Counted from the first letter of the stretch, positions 5,427 to 26,630 are shown. The stretch is DNA of 27,139 bases from a virus (IMGVR_UViG_3300030450_002859:1-27139), one strand, 5' to 3'. A program made the numbers and translations. Notes: a model not told the origin generated them from the letters alone.

Positions 5427-6956
5427 ATGGCATATAATTCAACAACATGGTCCCCTGAGACTTTAACAAAGGCTAGTGAAACTACTTCACAAGAGTTAAA
5501 TAATGCTACGTTAAGCGGAACATTAACAGTAAGTGGAGCAACTCAATTAAATTCAACATTAACAATAGGTGTTGATGATACAGGATATGATGTTAAATTC
5601 TTTGGAGCCACAAGTGGAAGTTTTATGTTATGGGATGAATCTGATGACGCACTAGAATTAACAGATAGTACTCCTATAAAAATTGGTGATGGTGGAGATA
5701 TGCAAATATATCACAATGGTTCACATTCTTTTATTACAAATTCTACAGGTACTATGAATCTTGCAACTGAAAATAGCGGAATTGCGGTGTCAATAGGTCA
5801 TACAACATCTGAAACAACAGTCAATGACAATTTAACTGTTACAGGTATATTAGATATTACAGATGTAACGGCTGCAAATAATTATACTGGCGACACAGGT
5901 GCATTGAGATGTGAAGGTGGTGGTTCTATTGCTAAAAACCTTTATGTTGGAACAGATTTCCATGTTGATGGAATAGCTTATTTAGATGATACGGATATTG
6001 ACGGTACTTTAGTAGTAGATGGCTCAAACATATCCTTAGATTCAACAAGTACTTTAAATATAGATAATAGCAATACGTCTAATGGAATTACAATAGGAAC
6101 AGCTACAAGTGGAGTTCCTATTAGCATTGGTCATACAACATCCGAGACTACGGTTAATGATAATTTGACTGTTACAGGTGATTTGAAGTTATCAAGTAAT
6201 GTTATCAAGGCATCTGATGGAGGTTCAACAATAACTCTTGATACTCATGACAATATATGGATTGGAAATAATTTAATAGTTGGTGGAAATATTGTTAAAG
6301 CTTCTGATGGCGGAAATACTATTACAATGGATACATCTGATAATGTAACTATTGGAAATAATTTAAAAGTTGGAGGAAATGTTATACAAGCATCAGATGG
6401 TGGAAATACTATTACAATGGACACCTCTGACAATGTAACAATTGCTGGTGATTTAACTGTGACTGGCGGAGATATTGATTTATCAGGTGAAGCATCTCAA
6501 ATTACTTTAATTGATAATGCAACTGGCGCCCTTCAAATAGGTTCGGATGGGGCTCTTGATTTATTTAAACTCAATACTAGTGATGGTGGGCCAACAATAC
6601 AAATAAATTCTGCTAAGGGTCAGCTTTATGCAAATCTTCCCACTTTAAAACTAACGGAGACAGCTGTTGTTACTGGAGATGCTAATGATGCATCTCCTGC
6701 TAGTATTACACTTGATGCTAATTATATGGGTTCGCATACAGTAACAAGACATAATTATATGGTTTTAGAAAATCCAAATTTAACTAACACAACACTTACA
6801 AATGCTTGTGTATTTAGTTTTGATGCTAATGCAGGGACTCATAAGGCTATAGATAGTGGAAGTGCGCATCCTGATATAGATACCACAGATGCTTGGATGA
6901 AAATTAATATTAATGGTACGGTATATTACATTCCATGTTATACGGATAAATCTTAA
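5427..6956 (+). CDS. Repeat-rich tail or head fibre protein
   Basis: This 509-residue beta-structured protein is dominated by short repeats of the type 'GDLTVTG', 'TIGNNL' and 'DGGNTITMDT'. It starts with a probable attachment segment (MAYNSTTWSPETLTKASETT). Residues 255-345 contain three exact-period 30-residue repeats, and the segment IGHTTSETTVNDNLTVTG occurs twice, 111 residues apart. This pattern fits a trimeric beta-helical shaft. The last ~100 residues (from about TLKLTETAVVTGDANDASPA to NGTVYYIPCYTDKS) differ and probably form a tip or knob. No chaperone domain or lyase motif is visible. It opens the fibre region of the operon. Receptor binding is the likely role, inferred from the fold type. 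Confidence 0.75.
   Translation: MAYNSTTWSPETLTKASETTSQELNNATLSGTLTVSGATQLNSTLTIGVDDTGYDVKFFGATSGSFMLWDESDDALELTDSTPIKIGDGGDMQIYHNGSHSFITNSTGTMNLATENSGIAVSIGHTTSETTVNDNLTVTGILDITDVTAANNYTGDTGALRCEGGGSIAKNLYVGTDFHVDGIAYLDDTDIDGTLVVDGSNISLDSTSTLNIDNSNTSNGITIGTATSGVPISIGHTTSETTVNDNLTVTGDLKLSSNVIKASDGGSTITLDTHDNIWIGNNLIVGGNIVKASDGGNTITMDTSDNVTIGNNLKVGGNVIQASDGGNTITMDTSDNVTIAGDLTVTGGDIDLSGEASQITLIDNATGALQIGSDGALDLFKLNTSDGGPTIQINSAKGQLYANLPTLKLTETAVVTGDANDASPASITLDANYMGSHTVTRHNYMVLENPNLTNTTLTNACVFSFDANAGTHKAIDSGSAHPDIDTTDAWMKININGTVYYIPCYTDKS
5790..5846 (+). repeat. 57-bp in-frame repeat, copy 1
   Basis: This copy encodes SIGHTTSETTVNDNLTVTG. A second copy lies at 6123-6179, exactly 333 bases (111 codons) later. 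The copies differ at many third positions while the protein is nearly identical, so the duplication is old and kept by protein-level selection. Confidence 0.8.
6123..6179 (+). repeat. 57-bp in-frame repeat, copy 2
   Basis: This is the second copy of the fibre-shaft segment at 5790-5846. It directly precedes the 90-bp tandem repeats. Confidence 0.8.
6191..6460 (+). repeat. Three tandem 90-bp (30-codon) repeats in the fibre gene
   Basis: The units start at 6191, 6281 and 6371. Each encodes a '(G/S)N(V/I)(I/V)(K/Q)ASDGG(N/S)TIT(M/L)DT..DN' segment followed by 'IGNNL.VG' or a variant. Units 2 and 3 share a 20-base identical run (GGAAATACTATTACAATGGA) but otherwise differ mostly at third codon positions. 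Unit 1 is more diverged. They probably extend the fibre shaft. Confidence 0.85.
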
Positions 6957-9085: not shown

Positions 9086-10164
9086 TGGCTAATAGAGTAA
9101 CAAGAAATCACCGTAGAGATGGTATCCAATTTGGAGCAAATGGATATTTATCTTTAGCTGATAATGAAATTGATGTATCGAGTGGCGATTTAACTTTAGA
9201 TGTAGAAGGAGATATAAAATTAGACGCCAATGGAAATTCGATATATTTTGCCGATGGTGCTCAGACTGCTGGATTCGTAGCTATGACGTCAGGTGCAGCT
9301 ACACGTTTAAGACTTTATGAAATGGGTGGAGATTCAGATACTGATTATCTTAATATTGATGTAAAGGAACATGGTGAAACAGATATAAAAACGTCTGACG
9401 TAGCTGGTACAGCTGCTCATATATTAATTCAGCCTGATGGAGATTTGACATTAGACCCAGCATCTCAAAAAATAATTATTAATGCTACAGATAAACTTTA
9501 TCTTGATGGTGGAACCGATACTTATATATATGAAGATGCAGATGATGATTTGAGAATCGTAGTGGGTAATGTTGGTATAATGACGCTTTATCAAACTGCT
9601 GCTGTTGGCGAGAATTATGTATCTATCACTAATTCTAATTTAAGAATACCATCTACACATAAATTGCATTTTGACGGCGGTGGAGATACTTTTATACAAG
9701 AAGTTTCAGCAGATAATCTTAAGTTTGTTGTTGGTGATGACACTGTTCTTGAGCTTACTGAAGCAGGCAATTCAGGCAATCTTGTTAATATGGGCACAAG
9801 TGGTGCAGGCTTTACACAGCATGAACCAACATATGATGCTGCTGATACACAAGTATATTTTGCAAAGCTTGGTAATAAAGCATTTTTAACATTTGGAGCT
9901 GGCGACATAGGTAATATGCTTATATATTTTCCTAATGCATCTTGTAATTGCACATTGGTTATTAAGCAAGATGGAACAGGGAGTAGGACAGTTACTTCTT
10001 GGAAAGCACATGACCAAGCTGCAGGAAATGCAACTAATGTTCAATGGGCAGGTGGCTCTGCTCCTACATTATCAACAGGAGCAAATGCAATAGATATAAT
10101 AAGTTTTTATTGGGATAATGATAATCATACAGCTTATGGGGTAGCAAGTTTAAATTTTAGTTAA
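9085..10164 (+). CDS. Tail fibre-like protein (359 aa)
   Basis: The chain begins with a basic attachment-like segment (MANRVTRNHRRDGIQFGANG) followed by shaft-like beta repeats rich in 'GDLTLD', 'LDGGTDTYIYEDADDDLRIV' and 'LHFDGGGDTFIQEVSADNLK'. The last ~110 residues (from about FTQHEPTYDAADTQVYFAKL) resemble a globular tip with a 'TVTSWKAHDQ ... WAGGSAPTLSTGANAIDIIS' pattern common at the ends of phage fibres. No enzyme motif is visible. The start lies in TAATG and has no Shine-Dalgarno sequence just upstream, so it probably depends on translation of the gene before. It is likely a receptor-binding fibre. Confidence 0.7.
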   Translation: MANRVTRNHRRDGIQFGANGYLSLADNEIDVSSGDLTLDVEGDIKLDANGNSIYFADGAQTAGFVAMTSGAATRLRLYEMGGDSDTDYLNIDVKEHGETDIKTSDVAGTAAHILIQPDGDLTLDPASQKIIINATDKLYLDGGTDTYIYEDADDDLRIVVGNVGIMTLYQTAAVGENYVSITNSNLRIPSTHKLHFDGGGDTFIQEVSADNLKFVVGDDTVLELTEAGNSGNLVNMGTSGAGFTQHEPTYDAADTQVYFAKLGNKAFLTFGAGDIGNMLIYFPNASCNCTLVIKQDGTGSRTVTSWKAHDQAAGNATNVQWAGGSAPTLSTGANAIDIISFYWDNDNHTAYGVASLNFS

Positions 10165-10718
10165 TGGCATTTAAAGATAACATATTAACTTTTGAAGATA
10201 CAAAGATAACTGATACATCATCAGATATTGAAGTAATGATGGATTGGGAAGCGCCGATAATGGAAAAGAGCGCAGAGTTTATATGCCATAATAAAGGAGA
10301 TATATTAGAAATAGGTTTTGGTATGGGAATATGTGCTGATTATATACAAGCACAAGGAGTTAATTCTCATACTATTATTGAAATACATCCACAGATATTA
10401 GAAAGATTAAATACTTGGGCATCAGACAAATCAAATGTTACTATTATTGAAGGAGATTGGAGTTCAGTATCTTTATCTAATACTTATGATGGTATATTTC
10501 TTGATACGTTTGGTGATGATAGTTTAAATAAATTTAAAACTTTTGCATTAGCAAAAATTAAATCAGGTGGAAAAATAACATATTGGAACAATAATGAAGC
10601 AGAGTACAATCCCTATTCATTTGATTCTATTGATTATGAAAAGGTTTCAGTATCTCCATCGGAGAATATGTATACAAATATTGCATCTGATTATTATATG
10701 CCAAAGGTGGAAATTTAA
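10164..10718 (+). CDS. SAM-dependent methyltransferase, GAMT/RMT2-like
   Basis: This 184-residue protein has a class I methyltransferase fold. Residues 48-55 (LEIGFGMG) form the S-adenosylmethionine loop, E73 in HTIIEIHP fits the ribose-binding acid, and 109-116 read DGIFLDTF. The pattern matches guanidinoacetate methyltransferase and yeast RMT2, which methylate guanidino groups: VMMDWEAPIM (24-33), IECN-like strand, LNTWA, YDGI..DT, and near the end SDYYMP. E29 and D114 line up with the two acids that hold the guanidino group in mammalian GAMT (E45, D134). The chain is shorter than human GAMT (236) but keeps all these blocks. It is coupled by TAATG on both sides to fibre-type genes and lacks its own good ribosome site. 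The substrate is unknown; protein arginine or a small guanidino compound are options. Confidence 0.75.
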   Translation: MAFKDNILTFEDTKITDTSSDIEVMMDWEAPIMEKSAEFICHNKGDILEIGFGMGICADYIQAQGVNSHTIIEIHPQILERLNTWASDKSNVTIIEGDWSSVSLSNTYDGIFLDTFGDDSLNKFKTFALAKIKSGGKITYWNNNEAEYNPYSFDSIDYEKVSVSPSENMYTNIASDYYMPKVEI

Positions 10719-19961: not shown

Positions 19962-22900
19962 ATGGCTAACAAGACATATAAATATACAAGCGATGAATTT
20001 ATAAATTATTTAAGAAATGATGACCCTGTCTTTCAAAATTCTTTCCATCAAAATTTACCTGATGAAGAATTGTATAGACTTGGAATGAGAACATATAGCA
20101 ATTATGCTGACCAAGTTGAGCCGTTAACTCCTATTGAAAAACCTGATGTAGATGTGTCTCCTGGTTGGTTTGACTCTATTCCTAGATACGGTATAGATGA
20201 GAACTCTCCTGATTTTATGAAGTCTGCTTATGCAAATTCTTTACAAGGGATGCTTGACCTTTATGAAGATGGTAGATTACCTTTTGAATATGAAGAGTAT
20301 GATTTAAATATTTTAGAACAACTTGGTGCTGGTATTATGGGACTAGCTATGCCATTAGATGCACTTACCATGTTTGGCGGTGGTGGAGTTGTTGGTGCAG
20401 GAATCAAAAAAGCAGCAACAAAAACATTAGGTCAAAAAGCATTCCAAAAAGAAATATCCGATAAAGCTTTTAAAAAGAAAGCTCTTGAAGCATTGACAAG
20501 TAAAGGTCTTGACCAAACAAGAGCAGCAGACATATTTAATAGAATGGTAGGAAGTGGTTCACAGTTTGCTGTGTATGAAGGTGCTAAAGGTGGAGTTGGA
20601 GCAGCTTTAAATGGAGAAGATGTAAAACAAGGAGTGTTTCATGGAGTTGTTCATGGTGGTACTTTAGGTGGCGTATTAGGACTTACAGGCGGAGTTCTTG
20701 GTAACTTTTATAAAGAACTATCGGCAGCAAAAAATATAAAGGCAGGAACGTTATTTCCTAAGACTCCTGGATTAACAGGTGGTGCAAAAGCAGCTGAAAC
20801 AAGAACCATAAATGCAGCAACTAACACAAATAAATATGTTAATTGGAGCGATGATGCAATTGAAACATGGATGAAAAGAACGGGTCCTGGTTCTCAATTC
20901 TCAGCAGAAGTAGGAGTTCTTACGGGAGCTGCTCAATTGGATAGATACAAGCAAGGTGAGGAGCTTACTTGGGGCAACTTGTTTAATGATGCATTTTTCA
21001 ATATAGGTTTCGTGGGTACGATGAAGGCTGGTACAAAAGCAGTTGAATCAAGCATGAAAGCATATAGAGGATGGAGAGATACTCTTACTCCTGAAGAAGC
21101 ACGTGCAAAAGAAACATTTGAACGTTATGAAAAAGCTAGTGAAGAAGTATCAAAATCGGTGAATGTTGAAGACGCAACAACTCCTCAAGGCAAAGCTATT
21201 GCTGATGCTATTAAAAAAATGCCAATTGAAGAACTTAAAGCTAACGATTATCAAATATTAAGAGATAAAAAAATTGCGATAGATGAAGCGATAAATAAGA
21301 CTAAAGTATTTGAAGAGCTTATTAAAGATACTGAAAAAATGGGTACATCAGAATTATCTAGGTGGAAAGATAAGATGGGAGAGGTTGCTGAAGTACTTAA
21401 TGGTGCCGAATTAGCATTGGATGAAGTTGCAAAGTCTGGAAAACCTATATTTGCTAAAGAAGAAATTAGTCAAATGAGGTCCGATATACAAAATTATCGT
21501 AAAGCATTAAACAATCAATTGCTTAGAAAAACAGATATTAAAGCGGAAGATGCTAAGGCTGAGCAGCTTGAAATGACAAGCCTTATTAACTTTATAAAAA
21601 CTGAAGGTGTAAAACAAGGTGGTAAAGGTTATAAGCCTACTATCGTAGAAGAGGGAGTGACAAGAGAGGTTCCATTAAAGAATCTTGGAGAATTAAATTT
21701 AGAGCAATTGCAATCAATAGAGTCAAGCCTTGTGCAAGCAGGTACTAAAAGAGTACAGGTTGTTAAAGAAGGGCAAGTACCTTATGAAAACATTAAACTT
21801 GATGTGGAAAGTAAAGGTTTATTAAATAAAGATATTAAATCTGCTTTGCCTGTTGCCGAAAAAAATATAATAATTGAATCTAAGTTAGGAGAGGTAAATA
21901 AAGATATATTATCTTATTCTGCAGATAAACTTAAGACATTACGAGGAACTTCAAAAGATGCTACTACTCAAGCAAAGAATTTATTAGAGTTTTCTGAAAA
22001 CAATATCAATTACAAAGTAAGCGATATAAGAAATTTAAATGAAGTTCAACAAAAAAGTTTAATAGCAGATTATATTAATGATTATTTTGGTTTTAATATA
22101 ATCAATAAAAAAACAGGACAAGCTTTAAAAGAATCGCAAATATTAAAATATTTTAAAAATGATAATGCTAAAACTAAACATGCAATGAGAGAAGTTACTA
22201 GGGTAATTAACTTGCTAAAAGAACACTTTCATCAAGAAGGTGGAATCAAAGATGTAATAGGATTTGATTTGATGAAACCTCAGGGTAAATTATTAAAAGG
22301 ATGGCAGCCATCAAGAATTGCCCAAAGAGAGCTCACTATTACTGGCGGTACAGAAGGACTAGGAAAATTAACTCAATGGGTTAAAAATAACTTCAAAGAT
22401 TATACATCTGAATTTGGAGGTGTTTATAAAAAAGGCAATACTTCTTTAATGATGGAAATGGCAACCAAAGGAAAGATGAGGCCAGGAGAAATACCAAGTG
22501 CAACAGTAAAAGATATTGATGTGCGAGCAGGGACTATTGAAGTTAAAGCTCCTGGAAAAACTGGAAGAACAGTAGCTATTGGCACAGCTCTTGCTAAAAA
22601 ATTGCAAACACATGCAAAGAAAAATAAACTAAAACTAAATGAGCAGCTTTTTGTAAAAGATGTAAAGCAACTTAATGAAGTATTAAAGCAAGTATATGCA
22701 CAAGCTCCTAAAAAATTAATACCTATCATAAAAGATTTATATACAGGAAAGCTTGTCCCTTATGATGCAAGTTTAAAAATGCCTACAGTTAAAGTTGGAA
22801 AATTGACACTTGGAGGAAGCCCTTACACAAGTAGGATTCAAGAATCGTCTATATTTAGAAGATTATTTGGAGATGGAGGTGTAGACCTTGGGCATGCTGA

Positions 22901-25900
22901 GGGAAGAGGTCAAGCACAAGCAAGAGCTAGCTATAAAAAAGCAGGAGATGCTCCGCCTAAATCTCCATTTGGAAAAGATATTGAACCTACTACACCACCT
23001 ACTAAAGGTCCAAGAAGAGATGCTATTGAAACTATAGAACAGGCAAAAGATAGACATTTAGAGATAGCTTATAAAACTAAAAACAAAAAAACAAAAGATG
23101 TTCAAGAAAAAATTGCGGTTGAAAAAGATATAATATTAAAAGCCTTGTCTGAGGGTGAAGGTGCAAAGTTTTTTGAAAGTGAAGCATTAGAAATATTATC
23201 TCGACACAAGCAGACACACATTGATGCATTGAAAGATAAAAACTTAGATGCAAAGAGTGTTGAGTTCCATAAAAATTGGGTTAAAAGTTATGGGGATGTA
23301 GCAAAGACTATATCAAAAGGATTCGCAGGAAAAGATAAGGTTAGACTTTTCAATAGTGAGACTCGACAAAGGATGACGATTGATAATGCTAAAAAGATAG
23401 CATATGCAGCTAGAGATTACCATATAAAGCAAACAGGTATGTGGAAAAAAGGAATGTCTAAATCTGAAAAGTCAAAGATTGAATCTAAACTTATTGAAGA
23501 AAGTGTAGTAGATGCAAAAAAATATAATCTAAAGAAAATATCTGAATTAAACTTAGAGCAAGTTAAAGAACTTGTTGATGGAATAAATGCACGAGAAGCG
23601 GTTAAGCCTGAGTCAAAGTTTGCGATTAGGGAGGCTAAGTTTTTTAAAGAAATGTCTGATAAGTATAAGGACTTATCACGTGATGATATAGCTTTAATGT
23701 TAAGAGACTTAGGGGTTAAAGACGGAGCTGTAAAAAATATTAGAAATATTGAAACATTTGATACTGTTGAAGCAATAATTCATTCAACAAAAGAGCAAAT
23801 GCCTAAATTGGATACATTCACAACTGGTGCTATGGAGCTTGTAAATAATCCTGAGGTAAGAATGCCACGATTTAGAACAACTTCATCAATTTGGCATGGA
23901 TTTGCTCCACTTCTTATTAGGCATAAAAAAACAGAAGCTATAGGTGGTATGCTTATTGATGCAGAGGTTGTTAATGCTAGACATAAAAAACTAGCTACAG
24001 AAACAATTGAGTCTGTAATGCCTAAAGTAAAAGAAGCTGGGTTTAAACATAATGAAGCATATATGTTTATGTTTATAGATAAAAAAATGTATACAGGAGA
24101 GAATGCAAAATTTCTATCTCCAAGAGAAAAGAAATTTATAGACATGATGAACGATAAGAAGCCTAATCCTATCAATACTGCGGTGGCTGAAATAAATAGC
24201 ATGTATAAGAGATATTGGGAAAAGGCTAAAGAGGTTGTTATAAGCTCTGATTGGGCATCCAAGATGAAGCAAGAAGATTATATCAACTACCTCAACCAGA
24301 AACATCTTGAAAACTATTATACAAGAAGGGTTAATCCTAAAGTGCTCGATGCATTGCAAGATAGAAAAGGTAATGTTTGGATGGGAATATTCAACAAGAA
24401 TCTTGATGCAGAAATAGCAAAGATGAAAAGAAAGACTGATAAAAAAGGTAAGTTTATTGAAACTCAAGATGCATTCAAATTGAGAAAAGCAGAAAAAAGG
24501 AAAGATGATAATCTTAGAAAAAAAATAGAAAAAGATATGGATAGATTTTTCTTTTCAGCAGGAACTCGTGTTGATTTTAGTTTTATGAAAAATAGAAAGT
24601 TTGACTTACCAAGAAAAATTGAAATTGAAGTTAAGGACAGAGATGGCAATGTAAAAGGAATGAAAGAGGTTAACTCTTACATAGAAAAATTTGATGCTAT
24701 TGTTGGGTATTATGGTGTTGGAATGTCAAAGCTTTTAACAATGTTAGAATATTTCCCTGAGTTTACAACTGTAGGTCAAAAATTTGGAGGAGGACAATTA
24801 AGCACAAATATGTTTAAGCTCATGGAAGGTAAAAATAGTGAGCTTGGGGTCAATGCAGAATGGGCTAATTTTATTAAGATGGGATTAGAGAATTACTTAG
24901 GCTTAGGTGGGCAAAGAGGAAATGTTCCGCTTAAAAGAAATCTAGGTATTATATCATCAACAAGTGCTGCTATTGGCTTATCATCTCCTACATCAGGTCT
25001 TAAAAACTTAGCAATTGGTATACCTCGTTCAATTGGTCATTTTGGATATGCAAATACATTGAAAGCTTTATATAGATTTGCTACAAACAATGAAGATTTG
25101 ATGAGAAGAGATTTGAACTGGGTAAAAGATTATGGTTCAAAACAATTAGTATTAGAAGCTCAAGAAACTGCATTTGAAAGACTTCCATTTATAGGACATA
25201 AGCTTACGATGGATAATCTTTTCACATTTAATGCAATGACAAAAACAGAGGGTATAAATCGTATTGTTTCATCATATGCTGGGAATATGGCTTTTGAGCA
25301 AATGAATGCAGCTTATCATGGACGAGGTAAAACAGGTATGTTAATGATGGGCGGTAAGAAAGAGATACTAAGAACATATAAAGATGTATGGAAATTGAGC
25401 GAAAAAGAAATCAAGTATATAACTGAAACTCCCTATGAAAATCTTAACACTAAAAATAAAAAGCTTATGGATTTTATAACTCTTAAGGTTCAAGCTTATT
25501 CACATATAGCTACTCAAGGTTCTACATCTGCCGCTCTTTTACCTAAATGGATGTCAAACGATTATGCCAGACCTTTAACTTTATTCCAAAGAATGGCATG
25601 GTCAACAACTAATGATATTGCAACTAATTACTTAAAGCCTTTAAGGAACTTTCAAAATCCTATGCCAATATTAAGAGCTACACTTGCTCATGGATTAACA
25701 GGAGCAGCATTGTATAAGTTTTATGAAAAAATTATGGGTTATGAAGTTCCTGAGCAATTACGAGACAATACTGATATAAGAAAATGGTTGCCTTACTTAT
25801 GGCGTTCTGAGTTTTTTGGATTGTTTGGCGAGTTCTTTAACCCTCACTCATCACATTTATATGATAAAAATAAAGGGTTTTTAGATTTATTTGGAAGTGA

Positions 25901-26630
25901 TGCAACTCAGTCCAGAGGATTATTAGAACCTGTTATTATAAGAAATGCAGCAGTGCTTTTAGAGAATGGTTCTGAAATATTAAAAGCTGTGGCACCTTTT
26001 GACTTTGGAGGTAAGCAAACCAAACTTGCAAGACAAGCAGTTAAAGACCTTACAACACAATCTATAGTAGTAACAGGACAATTATCAAGAATATATGACA
26101 ACTATCGCTCATCTGATTTAAAGTCTCATAGAAAATTAAAGCATGTATCAAGAGAATTTATGAAGCTAAAAGGCAAAACATTCCCAAGAGCTATGATTCA
26201 AAACTTCAGAGCACCTTATTATAGAGATTTGAAAGATAGTTTTTGGCATAAGAACGAACAAGAATGGGCAAGGACATATTGGAATGCATATAATTATATA
26301 GTAACAGAATATCAAAATGAAGGATACCACCCCCATGCTGCTCATAAGAAAGCAAAGACAACTATAAAACAATCTTTATCTTATATGAATCCTGTTAAGC
26401 AATTCTCAGAAGACTCTAAGGGTAGAGTTATATCAAAAAAAGCAGAATACTTAAATTTCTTAAAAAAGAATGCACCTGATAAGTATAAAGAAGCTCTTAG
26501 GTTAGAAAAAGAATTTGAATTTAGAATGAGGAAAATAGAGAGCATTGTTGGTAAGTATCAAAAAAGATATTCTGTTTTTCCTATGGGTCCAAAGGCTAAA
26601 TATACAGGTAAATACTTCGGTATATATTAA
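19962..26630 (+). CDS. Giant internal virion protein (2222 aa) with an embedded tyrosine-recombinase-like domain
   Basis: This is the largest gene in the window and probably the main ejection protein. Residues 1-110 are polar. Glycine-rich hydrophobic segments follow near 118-150 and 195-245 (LGAGIMGLAMPLDALTMFGG, GVVHGGTLGGVLGLTGGVLG), which may insert into membranes. Residues 370-760 are helical. Residues about 760-995 resemble a tyrosine recombinase (separate entry). Residues 1000-1300 are Lys-rich. The C-terminal third (about 1640-1930) has LGIISSTSAAIGLSSPTSGL and YARPLTLFQRMAWSTTNDIA, similar in style to domains at the ends of 'large polyvalent' phage proteins. The start has AAGGA 11 bases upstream, with a four-codon ORF between. 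It ends against a - strand gene. No lytic transglycosylase motif is visible. Confidence 0.75.
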   Translation: MANKTYKYTSDEFINYLRNDDPVFQNSFHQNLPDEELYRLGMRTYSNYADQVEPLTPIEKPDVDVSPGWFDSIPRYGIDENSPDFMKSAYANSLQGMLDLYEDGRLPFEYEEYDLNILEQLGAGIMGLAMPLDALTMFGGGGVVGAGIKKAATKTLGQKAFQKEISDKAFKKKALEALTSKGLDQTRAADIFNRMVGSGSQFAVYEGAKGGVGAALNGEDVKQGVFHGVVHGGTLGGVLGLTGGVLGNFYKELSAAKNIKAGTLFPKTPGLTGGAKAAETRTINAATNTNKYVNWSDDAIETWMKRTGPGSQFSAEVGVLTGAAQLDRYKQGEELTWGNLFNDAFFNIGFVGTMKAGTKAVESSMKAYRGWRDTLTPEEARAKETFERYEKASEEVSKSVNVEDATTPQGKAIADAIKKMPIEELKANDYQILRDKKIAIDEAINKTKVFEELIKDTEKMGTSELSRWKDKMGEVAEVLNGAELALDEVAKSGKPIFAKEEISQMRSDIQNYRKALNNQLLRKTDIKAEDAKAEQLEMTSLINFIKTEGVKQGGKGYKPTIVEEGVTREVPLKNLGELNLEQLQSIESSLVQAGTKRVQVVKEGQVPYENIKLDVESKGLLNKDIKSALPVAEKNIIIESKLGEVNKDILSYSADKLKTLRGTSKDATTQAKNLLEFSENNINYKVSDIRNLNEVQQKSLIADYINDYFGFNIINKKTGQALKESQILKYFKNDNAKTKHAMREVTRVINLLKEHFHQEGGIKDVIGFDLMKPQGKLLKGWQPSRIAQRELTITGGTEGLGKLTQWVKNNFKDYTSEFGGVYKKGNTSLMMEMATKGKMRPGEIPSATVKDIDVRAGTIEVKAPGKTGRTVAIGTALAKKLQTHAKKNKLKLNEQLFVKDVKQLNEVLKQVYAQAPKKLIPIIKDLYTGKLVPYDASLKMPTVKVGKLTLGGSPYTSRIQESSIFRRLFGDGGVDLGHAEGRGQAQARASYKKAGDAPPKSPFGKDIEPTTPPTKGPRRDAIETIEQAKDRHLEIAYKTKNKKTKDVQEKIAVEKDIILKALSEGEGAKFFESEALEILSRHKQTHIDALKDKNLDAKSVEFHKNWVKSYGDVAKTISKGFAGKDKVRLFNSETRQRMTIDNAKKIAYAARDYHIKQTGMWKKGMSKSEKSKIESKLIEESVVDAKKYNLKKISELNLEQVKELVDGINAREAVKPESKFAIREAKFFKEMSDKYKDLSRDDIALMLRDLGVKDGAVKNIRNIETFDTVEAIIHSTKEQMPKLDTFTTGAMELVNNPEVRMPRFRTTSSIWHGFAPLLIRHKKTEAIGGMLIDAEVVNARHKKLATETIESVMPKVKEAGFKHNEAYMFMFIDKKMYTGENAKFLSPREKKFIDMMNDKKPNPINTAVAEINSMYKRYWEKAKEVVISSDWASKMKQEDYINYLNQKHLENYYTRRVNPKVLDALQDRKGNVWMGIFNKNLDAEIAKMKRKTDKKGKFIETQDAFKLRKAEKRKDDNLRKKIEKDMDRFFFSAGTRVDFSFMKNRKFDLPRKIEIEVKDRDGNVKGMKEVNSYIEKFDAIVGYYGVGMSKLLTMLEYFPEFTTVGQKFGGGQLSTNMFKLMEGKNSELGVNAEWANFIKMGLENYLGLGGQRGNVPLKRNLGIISSTSAAIGLSSPTSGLKNLAIGIPRSIGHFGYANTLKALYRFATNNEDLMRRDLNWVKDYGSKQLVLEAQETAFERLPFIGHKLTMDNLFTFNAMTKTEGINRIVSSYAGNMAFEQMNAAYHGRGKTGMLMMGGKKEILRTYKDVWKLSEKEIKYITETPYENLNTKNKKLMDFITLKVQAYSHIATQGSTSAALLPKWMSNDYARPLTLFQRMAWSTTNDIATNYLKPLRNFQNPMPILRATLAHGLTGAALYKFYEKIMGYEVPEQLRDNTDIRKWLPYLWRSEFFGLFGEFFNPHSSHLYDKNKGFLDLFGSDATQSRGLLEPVIIRNAAVLLENGSEILKAVAPFDFGGKQTKLARQAVKDLTTQSIVVTGQLSRIYDNYRSSDLKSHRKLKHVSREFMKLKGKTFPRAMIQNFRAPYYRDLKDSFWHKNEQEWARTYWNAYNYIVTEYQNEGYHPHAAHKKAKTTIKQSLSYMNPVKQFSEDSKGRVISKKAEYLNFLKKNAPDKYKEALRLEKEFEFRMRKIESIVGKYQKRYSVFPMGPKAKYTGKYFGIY
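22239..22946 (+). other. Tyrosine-recombinase-like domain inside the giant protein (residues about 760-995)
   Basis: The ordered catalytic pattern of tyrosine recombinases can be read in frame. Box I is MRPGEI with R840, followed by DIDVRAGTIEVKAPGKTGRT, the beta hairpin that carries the catalytic lysine (K862 or K866). Box II has YTSR (955-958), a Y-x-x-R form of HxxR, then RRLFGDGGVDLGH with H978, and Y991 in ASYKKAG. Spacing from R958 to H978 (20) is near normal; H978 to Y991 (13) is about four longer than usual. The helical region before it (about 710-790) could be a core-binding domain. All six key positions have an allowed residue, so activity is possible but unproven. Residues around LGH are unusual (AEGRGQAQAR). 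Confidence 0.55.

What the first reader, a model, noticed from the sequence alone, without database searches (positions are those of the whole stretch)
22239..22946. Tyrosine-recombinase-like domain buried in a 2222-residue virion protein
Seen: an in-frame ordered set R840 (MRPGEI), K862/K866 in a beta-hairpin-like stretch, Y955-x-x-R958, L-G-H978 and Y991, at spacings close to those of phage integrases. Known: tyrosine recombinases (XerD, Cre, lambda Int) use R-K-H/Y-R-H/W-Y and are normally stand-alone proteins of 300-400 residues. Inference: a DNA recombinase module has been fused into a probable ejection protein. If active and delivered with the DNA, it could circularise or integrate the genome, or resolve ends, at the moment of entry, before any gene is expressed. 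If inactive, it may have been kept as a DNA-binding part. I do not know of a described example.
Basis: partly seen in the sequence, partly recalled or inferred. Interest (0 to 1): 0.78.

Follow-up and report, generated by a model that had tools for sequence, protein, structure and literature searches.

The report
Recombinase-like domain inside giant phage protein
A very large protein, probably carried in the particle of a marine virus of bacteria and sent into the cell with its DNA, contains a built-in relative of the enzymes that cut and rejoin DNA at specific sites, and the same arrangement recurs in at least five related viruses, so DNA cutting or binding may be delivered with the incoming genome.

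Summary
Confirmed in substance, and broader than reported. Residues ~640-1000 of the 2222-aa protein (window 19962-26630) are a diverged tyrosine-recombinase module: a core-binding-like part plus a catalytic domain. A Pfam hit (PF00589) just reaches the cut-off; NCBIfam XerA gives E 6.6e-9. A profile of six related giant proteins matches an integrase profile (Prob 97%, E 1e-11), and its best matches among all PDB sequences are XerD and XerA, though weak (E 0.14-0.25). In these giants, only 17-34% identical to the window there, the four invariant columns are G760, R840, G977 and H978, all integrase hallmarks. The module recurs in at least six phages of a widespread group with SU10-type capsids, none with a detected stand-alone integrase.

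The residue list needs correction. R840, K866, H978 and Y991 hold up. The box II arginine may be R958 or R966; only R966 is kept in the closest relative. The box II histidine is absent, and the arginine-to-LGH spacing is short. Catalysis is therefore open. Virion packaging and ejection are inferred from gene position and from analogous giant proteins, one found in virions by mass spectrometry. Most likely it is a DNA-handling module delivered with the genome, perhaps active in some members and DNA-binding only in others.

The parts
19962..26630 (+). giant protein, 2222 aa, last gene of the late (virion) gene cluster
   Evidence: ORF list and translation; 65% identical homologue in IMGVR_UViG_3300030098_005490; more distant homologues in at least 8 further contigs
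21879..22961 (+). tyrosine-recombinase-like module, residues 640-1000; evolves much faster than its flanks
   Evidence: NCBIfam/Pfam hits; identity to the relative drops to about 13-53% per 15-residue block over most of 640-1009, against 73-93% from residue 1010 on; HMM-HMM Prob 97%
22029..22274 (+). core-binding-like part, residues 690-771, ending in EGGI..(G)FDLM, which corresponds to the integrase 'reGl..nP' motif
   Evidence: XerA profile match starts at residue ~706; G760 invariant in six giants; the same part scores 14.9 bits on its own in L303
22419..22961 (+). catalytic-domain-like part, residues 820-1000
   Evidence: PF00589 at 827-900; AF2 pLDDT 82-98 over residues 800-929 with an integrase-containing alignment; XerA Z 10.7
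22479..22490 (+). box I: R840 and E843 (RPGE)
   Evidence: R840 = R in 90 of 90 integrases and 6 of 6 giants; E or D at +3 in all six giants
22557..22568 (+). beta-hairpin K866 and R869 (GKTGR)
   Evidence: K866 conserved in the relative; R869 aligns to the conserved hairpin Arg
22833..22859 (+). box II region with R958 and R966 (candidate second catalytic Arg)
   Evidence: R966 conserved in the relative; R958 favoured by a seven-sequence HMM-HMM alignment: unresolved
22887..22895 (+). LGH motif, H978 (His/Trp of the pentad)
   Evidence: G977 and H978 invariant in six giants; also GLGH in three split relatives
22932..22934 (+). Y991, candidate nucleophile, 13 residues after H978
   Evidence: Tyr 11-16 residues after GH in the giants
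20154..20732 (+). N-terminal conserved part (residues 65-257) of the giant-protein family
   Evidence: matches at 30-38% identity in relatives
23619..26627 (+). C-terminal conserved part (residues 1220-2222), a separate ORF in three relatives
   Evidence: 27-34% identity in several relatives; own ORF of 1015-1019 aa in L288-L290
480..1820 (+). SU10-type major capsid protein, used to find the phage group
   Evidence: PF17236 E 1.5e-29; at least 599 related stretches in IMG/VR

Best explanation
The giant protein is a multidomain late protein of 'polyvalent' type, probably carried in the virion and ejected with the genome. Its middle holds a tyrosine recombinase captured in an ancestor of this marine phage group. 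Shown: homology to the tyrosine recombinases, recurrence in six phages, retention of R840, K866, LGH and Tyr, and no stand-alone integrase detected. Inferred: packaging and ejection; that the module grips the incoming phage DNA (or host DNA) as a C-shaped clamp, as recombinases do; and that, at least in members with a full set of residues, it can nick and rejoin one strand through the tyrosine (relaxing, end-joining or circularising the genome during entry). In members that lost box I or box II residues it would be a DNA-binding part only. Probabilities: tyrosine-recombinase homology 0.95; delivered with DNA 0.75; still catalytic in at least some members 0.45; catalytic in this very protein 0.3.
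For: family hits; own HMM, shuffles; six-giant profile vs integrases: Prob 97%, E 1e-11, score 80-88 vs null maximum 29; best PDB matches XerD, XerD, XerA, E 0.14-0.25; invariant G760, R840, G977, H978; no other PF00589 match in 31 related records; structural cluster, phage group; giant proteins at the same position; one found in virions by mass spectrometry; L300 and L303 keep core-binding and catalytic parts.
Against: The HxxR histidine is missing; box II is not recognised by HMMs in the window protein; the box II Arg-to-His distance is 12 or 20 here, against about 23 usually; the AF2 model has pLDDT under 50 from residue 931 on; the module is degenerate or absent in several relatives. No evidence of packaging in this phage.
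Confidence: 0.6

Rival explanations
1. Repurposed, catalytically dead recombinase: the module only binds DNA (for example the genome end in the portal or tail, or a host site), like the SPbeta repressor MrpR/YopR, which keeps the fold but is thought to have lost activity.
For: Fast divergence and shortened box II; loss of box I Arg or box II Arg in relatives; MrpR and SroF are among the best fold matches; MrpR precedent PMC10516654.
Against: R840, K866, LGH and the Tyr are kept across giants that share only 17-34% identity with the window module; a pure binder has little need for the Tyr, although MrpR also keeps its Tyr and changes there make it temperature-sensitive.
Confidence: 0.4
2. Structural or packaging role inside the virion, comparable to baculovirus VLF-1, a tyrosine-recombinase-family protein involved in nucleocapsid assembly and genome packaging.
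For: Position among late genes; VLF-1-type proteins appear among the viral fold matches; VLF-1 described as a packaging-related recombinase homologue.
Against: Some relatives lack the module (L291, L294), so it is not needed for assembly across the group; phage packaging normally relies on terminase and portal.
Confidence: 0.15
3. Pure relic: a recombinase gene that fell into a tolerant hinge of the giant protein and is decaying without function.
For: Low identity of the module (30-38%) between flanks that are 80% identical; absent or unrecognisable in some relatives.
Against: Recurs in the middle of at least six divergent giants with hallmark residues invariant and both subdomains kept in L300 and L303.
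Confidence: 0.15
4. Chance similarity; not a recombinase at all.
For: Single-sequence Pfam score is only marginal.
Against: Profile-profile, shuffle, multi-family and PDB sequence searches all point to tyrosine recombinases.
Confidence: 0.03

Closest known systems
XerA / XerD / integrase tyrosine recombinases (PF00589, NF040815)
   Same: core-binding plus catalytic layout, box I RxxE, hairpin Lys, LGH, Tyr
   Different: embedded in a 2000-2500-aa late protein; box II histidine lost, box II Arg uncertain, Arg-LGH spacing altered; long insertion between hairpin and box II
Polyvalent proteins of phages and conjugative elements (Iyer et al. 2017, PMC5512222)
   Same: giant multidomain protein at the end of the virion gene cluster with variable middle modules; a relative (L293) has an HENAH motif after the module, compatible with a zincin peptidase part
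   Different: the words integrase and recombinase do not occur in that survey's main text; no profile match to its domains in the window protein
DarB-like / PLxRFG giant virion proteins (F116, Bcep22, JC1)
   Same: size class, position; JC1 gp69 (4515 aa) found in purified virions (PMC9144972)
   Different: no detectable sequence homology of the C-terminal parts; no integrase module in the eight sampled
Baculovirus/nudivirus VLF-1
   Same: tyrosine-recombinase homologue tied to virion formation
   Different: stand-alone protein of insect viruses; [quoted passage not shown]
MrpR/YopR and SroF of SPbeta-group phages
   Same: recombinase fold reused by phages
   Different: stand-alone repressors, not late giant proteins

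Membership tests
tyrosine recombinase (DNA_BRE_C, PF00589) | significant profile similarity | tested here: met
   marginal; strong
tyrosine recombinase (DNA_BRE_C, PF00589) | box I Arg with acidic residue at +3 | tested here: met
   R840/E843; 6 of 6 giants, R in 90 of 90 integrases
tyrosine recombinase (DNA_BRE_C, PF00589) | catalytic Lys in the beta2-beta3 hairpin | tested here: inconclusive
   K866 is conserved in the relative and lies in the hairpin, but aligns to the catalytic column only in some alignments
tyrosine recombinase (DNA_BRE_C, PF00589) | box II HxxR: His | tested here: not met
   Y955 or S963 at that place; no His in the relative either. Known members also vary here, so this weighs on activity more than on homology
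tyrosine recombinase (DNA_BRE_C, PF00589) | box II HxxR: Arg | tested here: inconclusive
   R958 or R966; alignments disagree
tyrosine recombinase (DNA_BRE_C, PF00589) | His/Trp in LGH motif | tested here: met
   G977-H978 invariant in six giants
tyrosine recombinase (DNA_BRE_C, PF00589) | nucleophilic Tyr downstream | tested here: inconclusive
   Y991 at +13; Tyr 11-16 residues after GH in relatives, usually about 9 in integrases
tyrosine recombinase (DNA_BRE_C, PF00589) | active site assembled in the fold | tested here: inconclusive
   2-sequence AF2 failed (pLDDT 40); integrase-guided model confident only for residues ~800-929 and circular by design; fold matches XerA Z 10.7
tyrosine recombinase (DNA_BRE_C, PF00589) | strand cleavage and rejoining | not testable with these tools
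   needs protein
phage polyvalent protein | giant multidomain protein next to virion genes | tested here: met
phage polyvalent protein | domains of the published polyvalent set | tested here: inconclusive
   none found in the window protein; HExxH motif in L293 and L287, no Pfam match for L293
phage polyvalent protein | packaged and injected | not testable with these tools
   only by analogy with JC1 gp69

The most novel reading that the evidence does not exclude
An active tyrosine recombinase or type IB topoisomerase-like enzyme is built into the ejection protein of a widespread marine podophage-like group and acts on the incoming genome at the moment of entry, before any phage gene is expressed.
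Probability: 0.33. Interest if true: 0.88.

Novelty: new variant of a known kind. Interest (0 to 1): 0.72.

Why it matters
Recombinases are normally made inside the cell from the phage genome. A recombinase module delivered with the DNA would offer a way to circularise, relax, anchor or protect a genome before expression, and would add tyrosine recombinases to the known cargo of ejected phage proteins. It also widens the case of VLF-1, whose virion-related role was described in 2024 as unique to baculo-like viruses.

Tried and rejected
Direct relatives of the module or of the whole giant by tblastn in 50,697 phage records: none (one search gave only three matches at E 1-5, judged chance). Six pattern scans of IMG/VR with pieces of the giant or module gave one relative or none; only the capsid protein opened the phage group. 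One scan of 84,980 prokaryote genomes with the giant's C-terminal part: none. Box II by single-sequence PSSM: top 3.5-6.5% of shuffles; joint score 2 of 300 column shuffles, yet unrelated windows of the same giants scored higher, so not significant by itself. Homology of the C-terminal part to DarB/PLxRFG giants: not detected. Integrase module in 11 other giant late proteins: not found. In the split relatives L289 and L290 the integrase HMM score is no better than shuffles, so they are called remnants by eye only.

Full report
Check of the observation. PF00589 is found at residues 827-900: 28 bits in the genome scan, 27.3 bits for the segment and 24.5 for the whole protein against a cut-off of 27.1. 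NCBIfam XerA_Arch matches residues ~706-904 with E 6.6e-9, which includes the core-binding part. An HMM I built from 90 bacterial integrases hits only this place in the giant significantly; the segment scores 32.6 bits against a maximum of 7.4 in 2000 shuffles. R840 aligns to Arg in all 90 integrases.

A close relative. One IMG/VR contig (3300030098_005490, L002/L005) carries a homologous giant, 65% identical (an assembly gap breaks its N-terminal part). Identity falls to about 30-38% in most of 650-1000 and jumps above 80% after residue 1000, so the module evolves fast or is exchanged. Of 13 Arg in residues 690-998 only R840, R869 and R966 are conserved; H978 and Y991 are conserved as well. 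The relative has no PF00589 hit, but its module ranks third in a set with 2000 shuffles of the window segment under the integrase HMM.

The phage group. The window begins with an SU10-type capsid protein and an SU10 adaptor. A capsid search found at least 599 related stretches in IMG/VR. Among 31 of the longer contigs, the only PF00589 match of any kind lies inside another giant protein (G099, 2311-residue frame), at 16.6 bits, below the family cut-off. Seven of these contigs exceed 41 kb, so absence of a stand-alone integrase is likely, though the records may be incomplete and diverged integrases could be missed. Giants homologous to the window protein at one or both ends occur in many of them. 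In three (L288-L290) the protein is split into a ~1200-aa and a ~1018-aa ORF.

Recurrence of the module. L287, L293, L300 and L303 (2226-2535 aa) carry a recombinase-like module in the middle, each above 500 shuffles with the integrase HMM. L303 and L300 keep a clear core-binding part, and L300 and L293 a clear box I. In an alignment of six giants, which are 17-34% identical to the window there, the invariant columns are G760, R840, G977 and H978. The six-sequence profile matches the integrase profile with Prob 97%, E down to 1e-11 over up to 217 columns; scores 80-88 versus a maximum of 29 in 40 column-permuted nulls (the null was run on one of the three alignments). Against all PDB sequences its first three hits are XerD, XerD and XerA, at weak E-values 0.14-0.25. 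This evidence does not use integrases to build the query, so it is not circular, although L287, L293, L300 and L303 were picked out partly by their integrase score.

Box II. Here the evidence is weaker. R958 and R966 are both candidates. The HxxR His is absent. The Arg-to-LGH spacing is 12 or 20 here and roughly 18-30 elsewhere in the group. By HMM-HMM the box II region of seven giants scores 21.0 against 13.5 for the best of 60 permutations, suggestive but modest. Relatives with a lost box I Arg (L288-L290) or box II Arg (L300) suggest that activity is not kept throughout.

Structure. The 2-sequence AF2 model failed (pLDDT 40) but showed helix-strand-strand-strand-helix at the right place. 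With 54 viral integrases in the alignment, residues ~800-929 reach pLDDT 82-98 and match XerA (Z 10.7, rmsd 3.3, 132 residues), Cre, lambda Int and topoisomerase IB; residues 931-991 stay under 50. This model is guided by integrases and by a trim I chose for register, so it shows compatibility, not proof.

Virion status. Inferred. The gene closes the late cluster, as giant proteins do in Mel-JY34, CRP-810 and Kuura, whose capsid proteins are distant relatives. Mel-JY34's giant belongs to a DarB/PLxRFG-like family, and JC1's 4515-aa DarB-like protein was found in purified virions (PMC9144972). No sequence homology between those and the window giant was found.

Mechanism and novelty. The best-supported reading is a DNA-handling module delivered with the genome; whether it cuts DNA is open. 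Polyvalent proteins are known (PMC5512222), but the main text of that survey does not mention integrases or recombinases. My literature searches found no described case, within an open-access library only. A 2024 paper calls the virion-related use of tyrosine recombinases unique to baculo-like viruses (PMC11654684). Reuse of the fold without catalysis is known from MrpR (PMC10516654).

Noticed in passing
L288-L290 (G102, G092, G089): The giant protein is split into two adjacent ORFs downstream of the recombinase-like remnant, so the C-terminal ~1018 residues can exist as a separate protein.
   Followed up: partly
L293, residue 1005; L287, residue 1086: HExxH motifs after the recombinase-like module in two relatives, possibly a zincin peptidase part; absent in the window protein.
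   Followed up: no
window 10164-10718: ORF with a methyltransferase-like Pfam match (RrnaAD, E 1.4e-6) inside the late gene cluster.
   Followed up: no
window 6261-6444: Two 90-base tandem copies (86% alike) inside the 509-aa ORF 5427-6956.
   Followed up: no
L006 1533-2348, 4297-5689: The relative's replication side carries a DNA methylase, a Sak-type annealing protein and a PD-(D/E)XK nuclease on the opposite strand.
   Followed up: no
window 22224-22295 (residues 755-778): Within the fast-evolving module, FHQEGGIKDVIGFDLMKPQGKLL is well conserved (about 70%) in the relative, corresponding to the end of the core-binding domain.
   Followed up: partly
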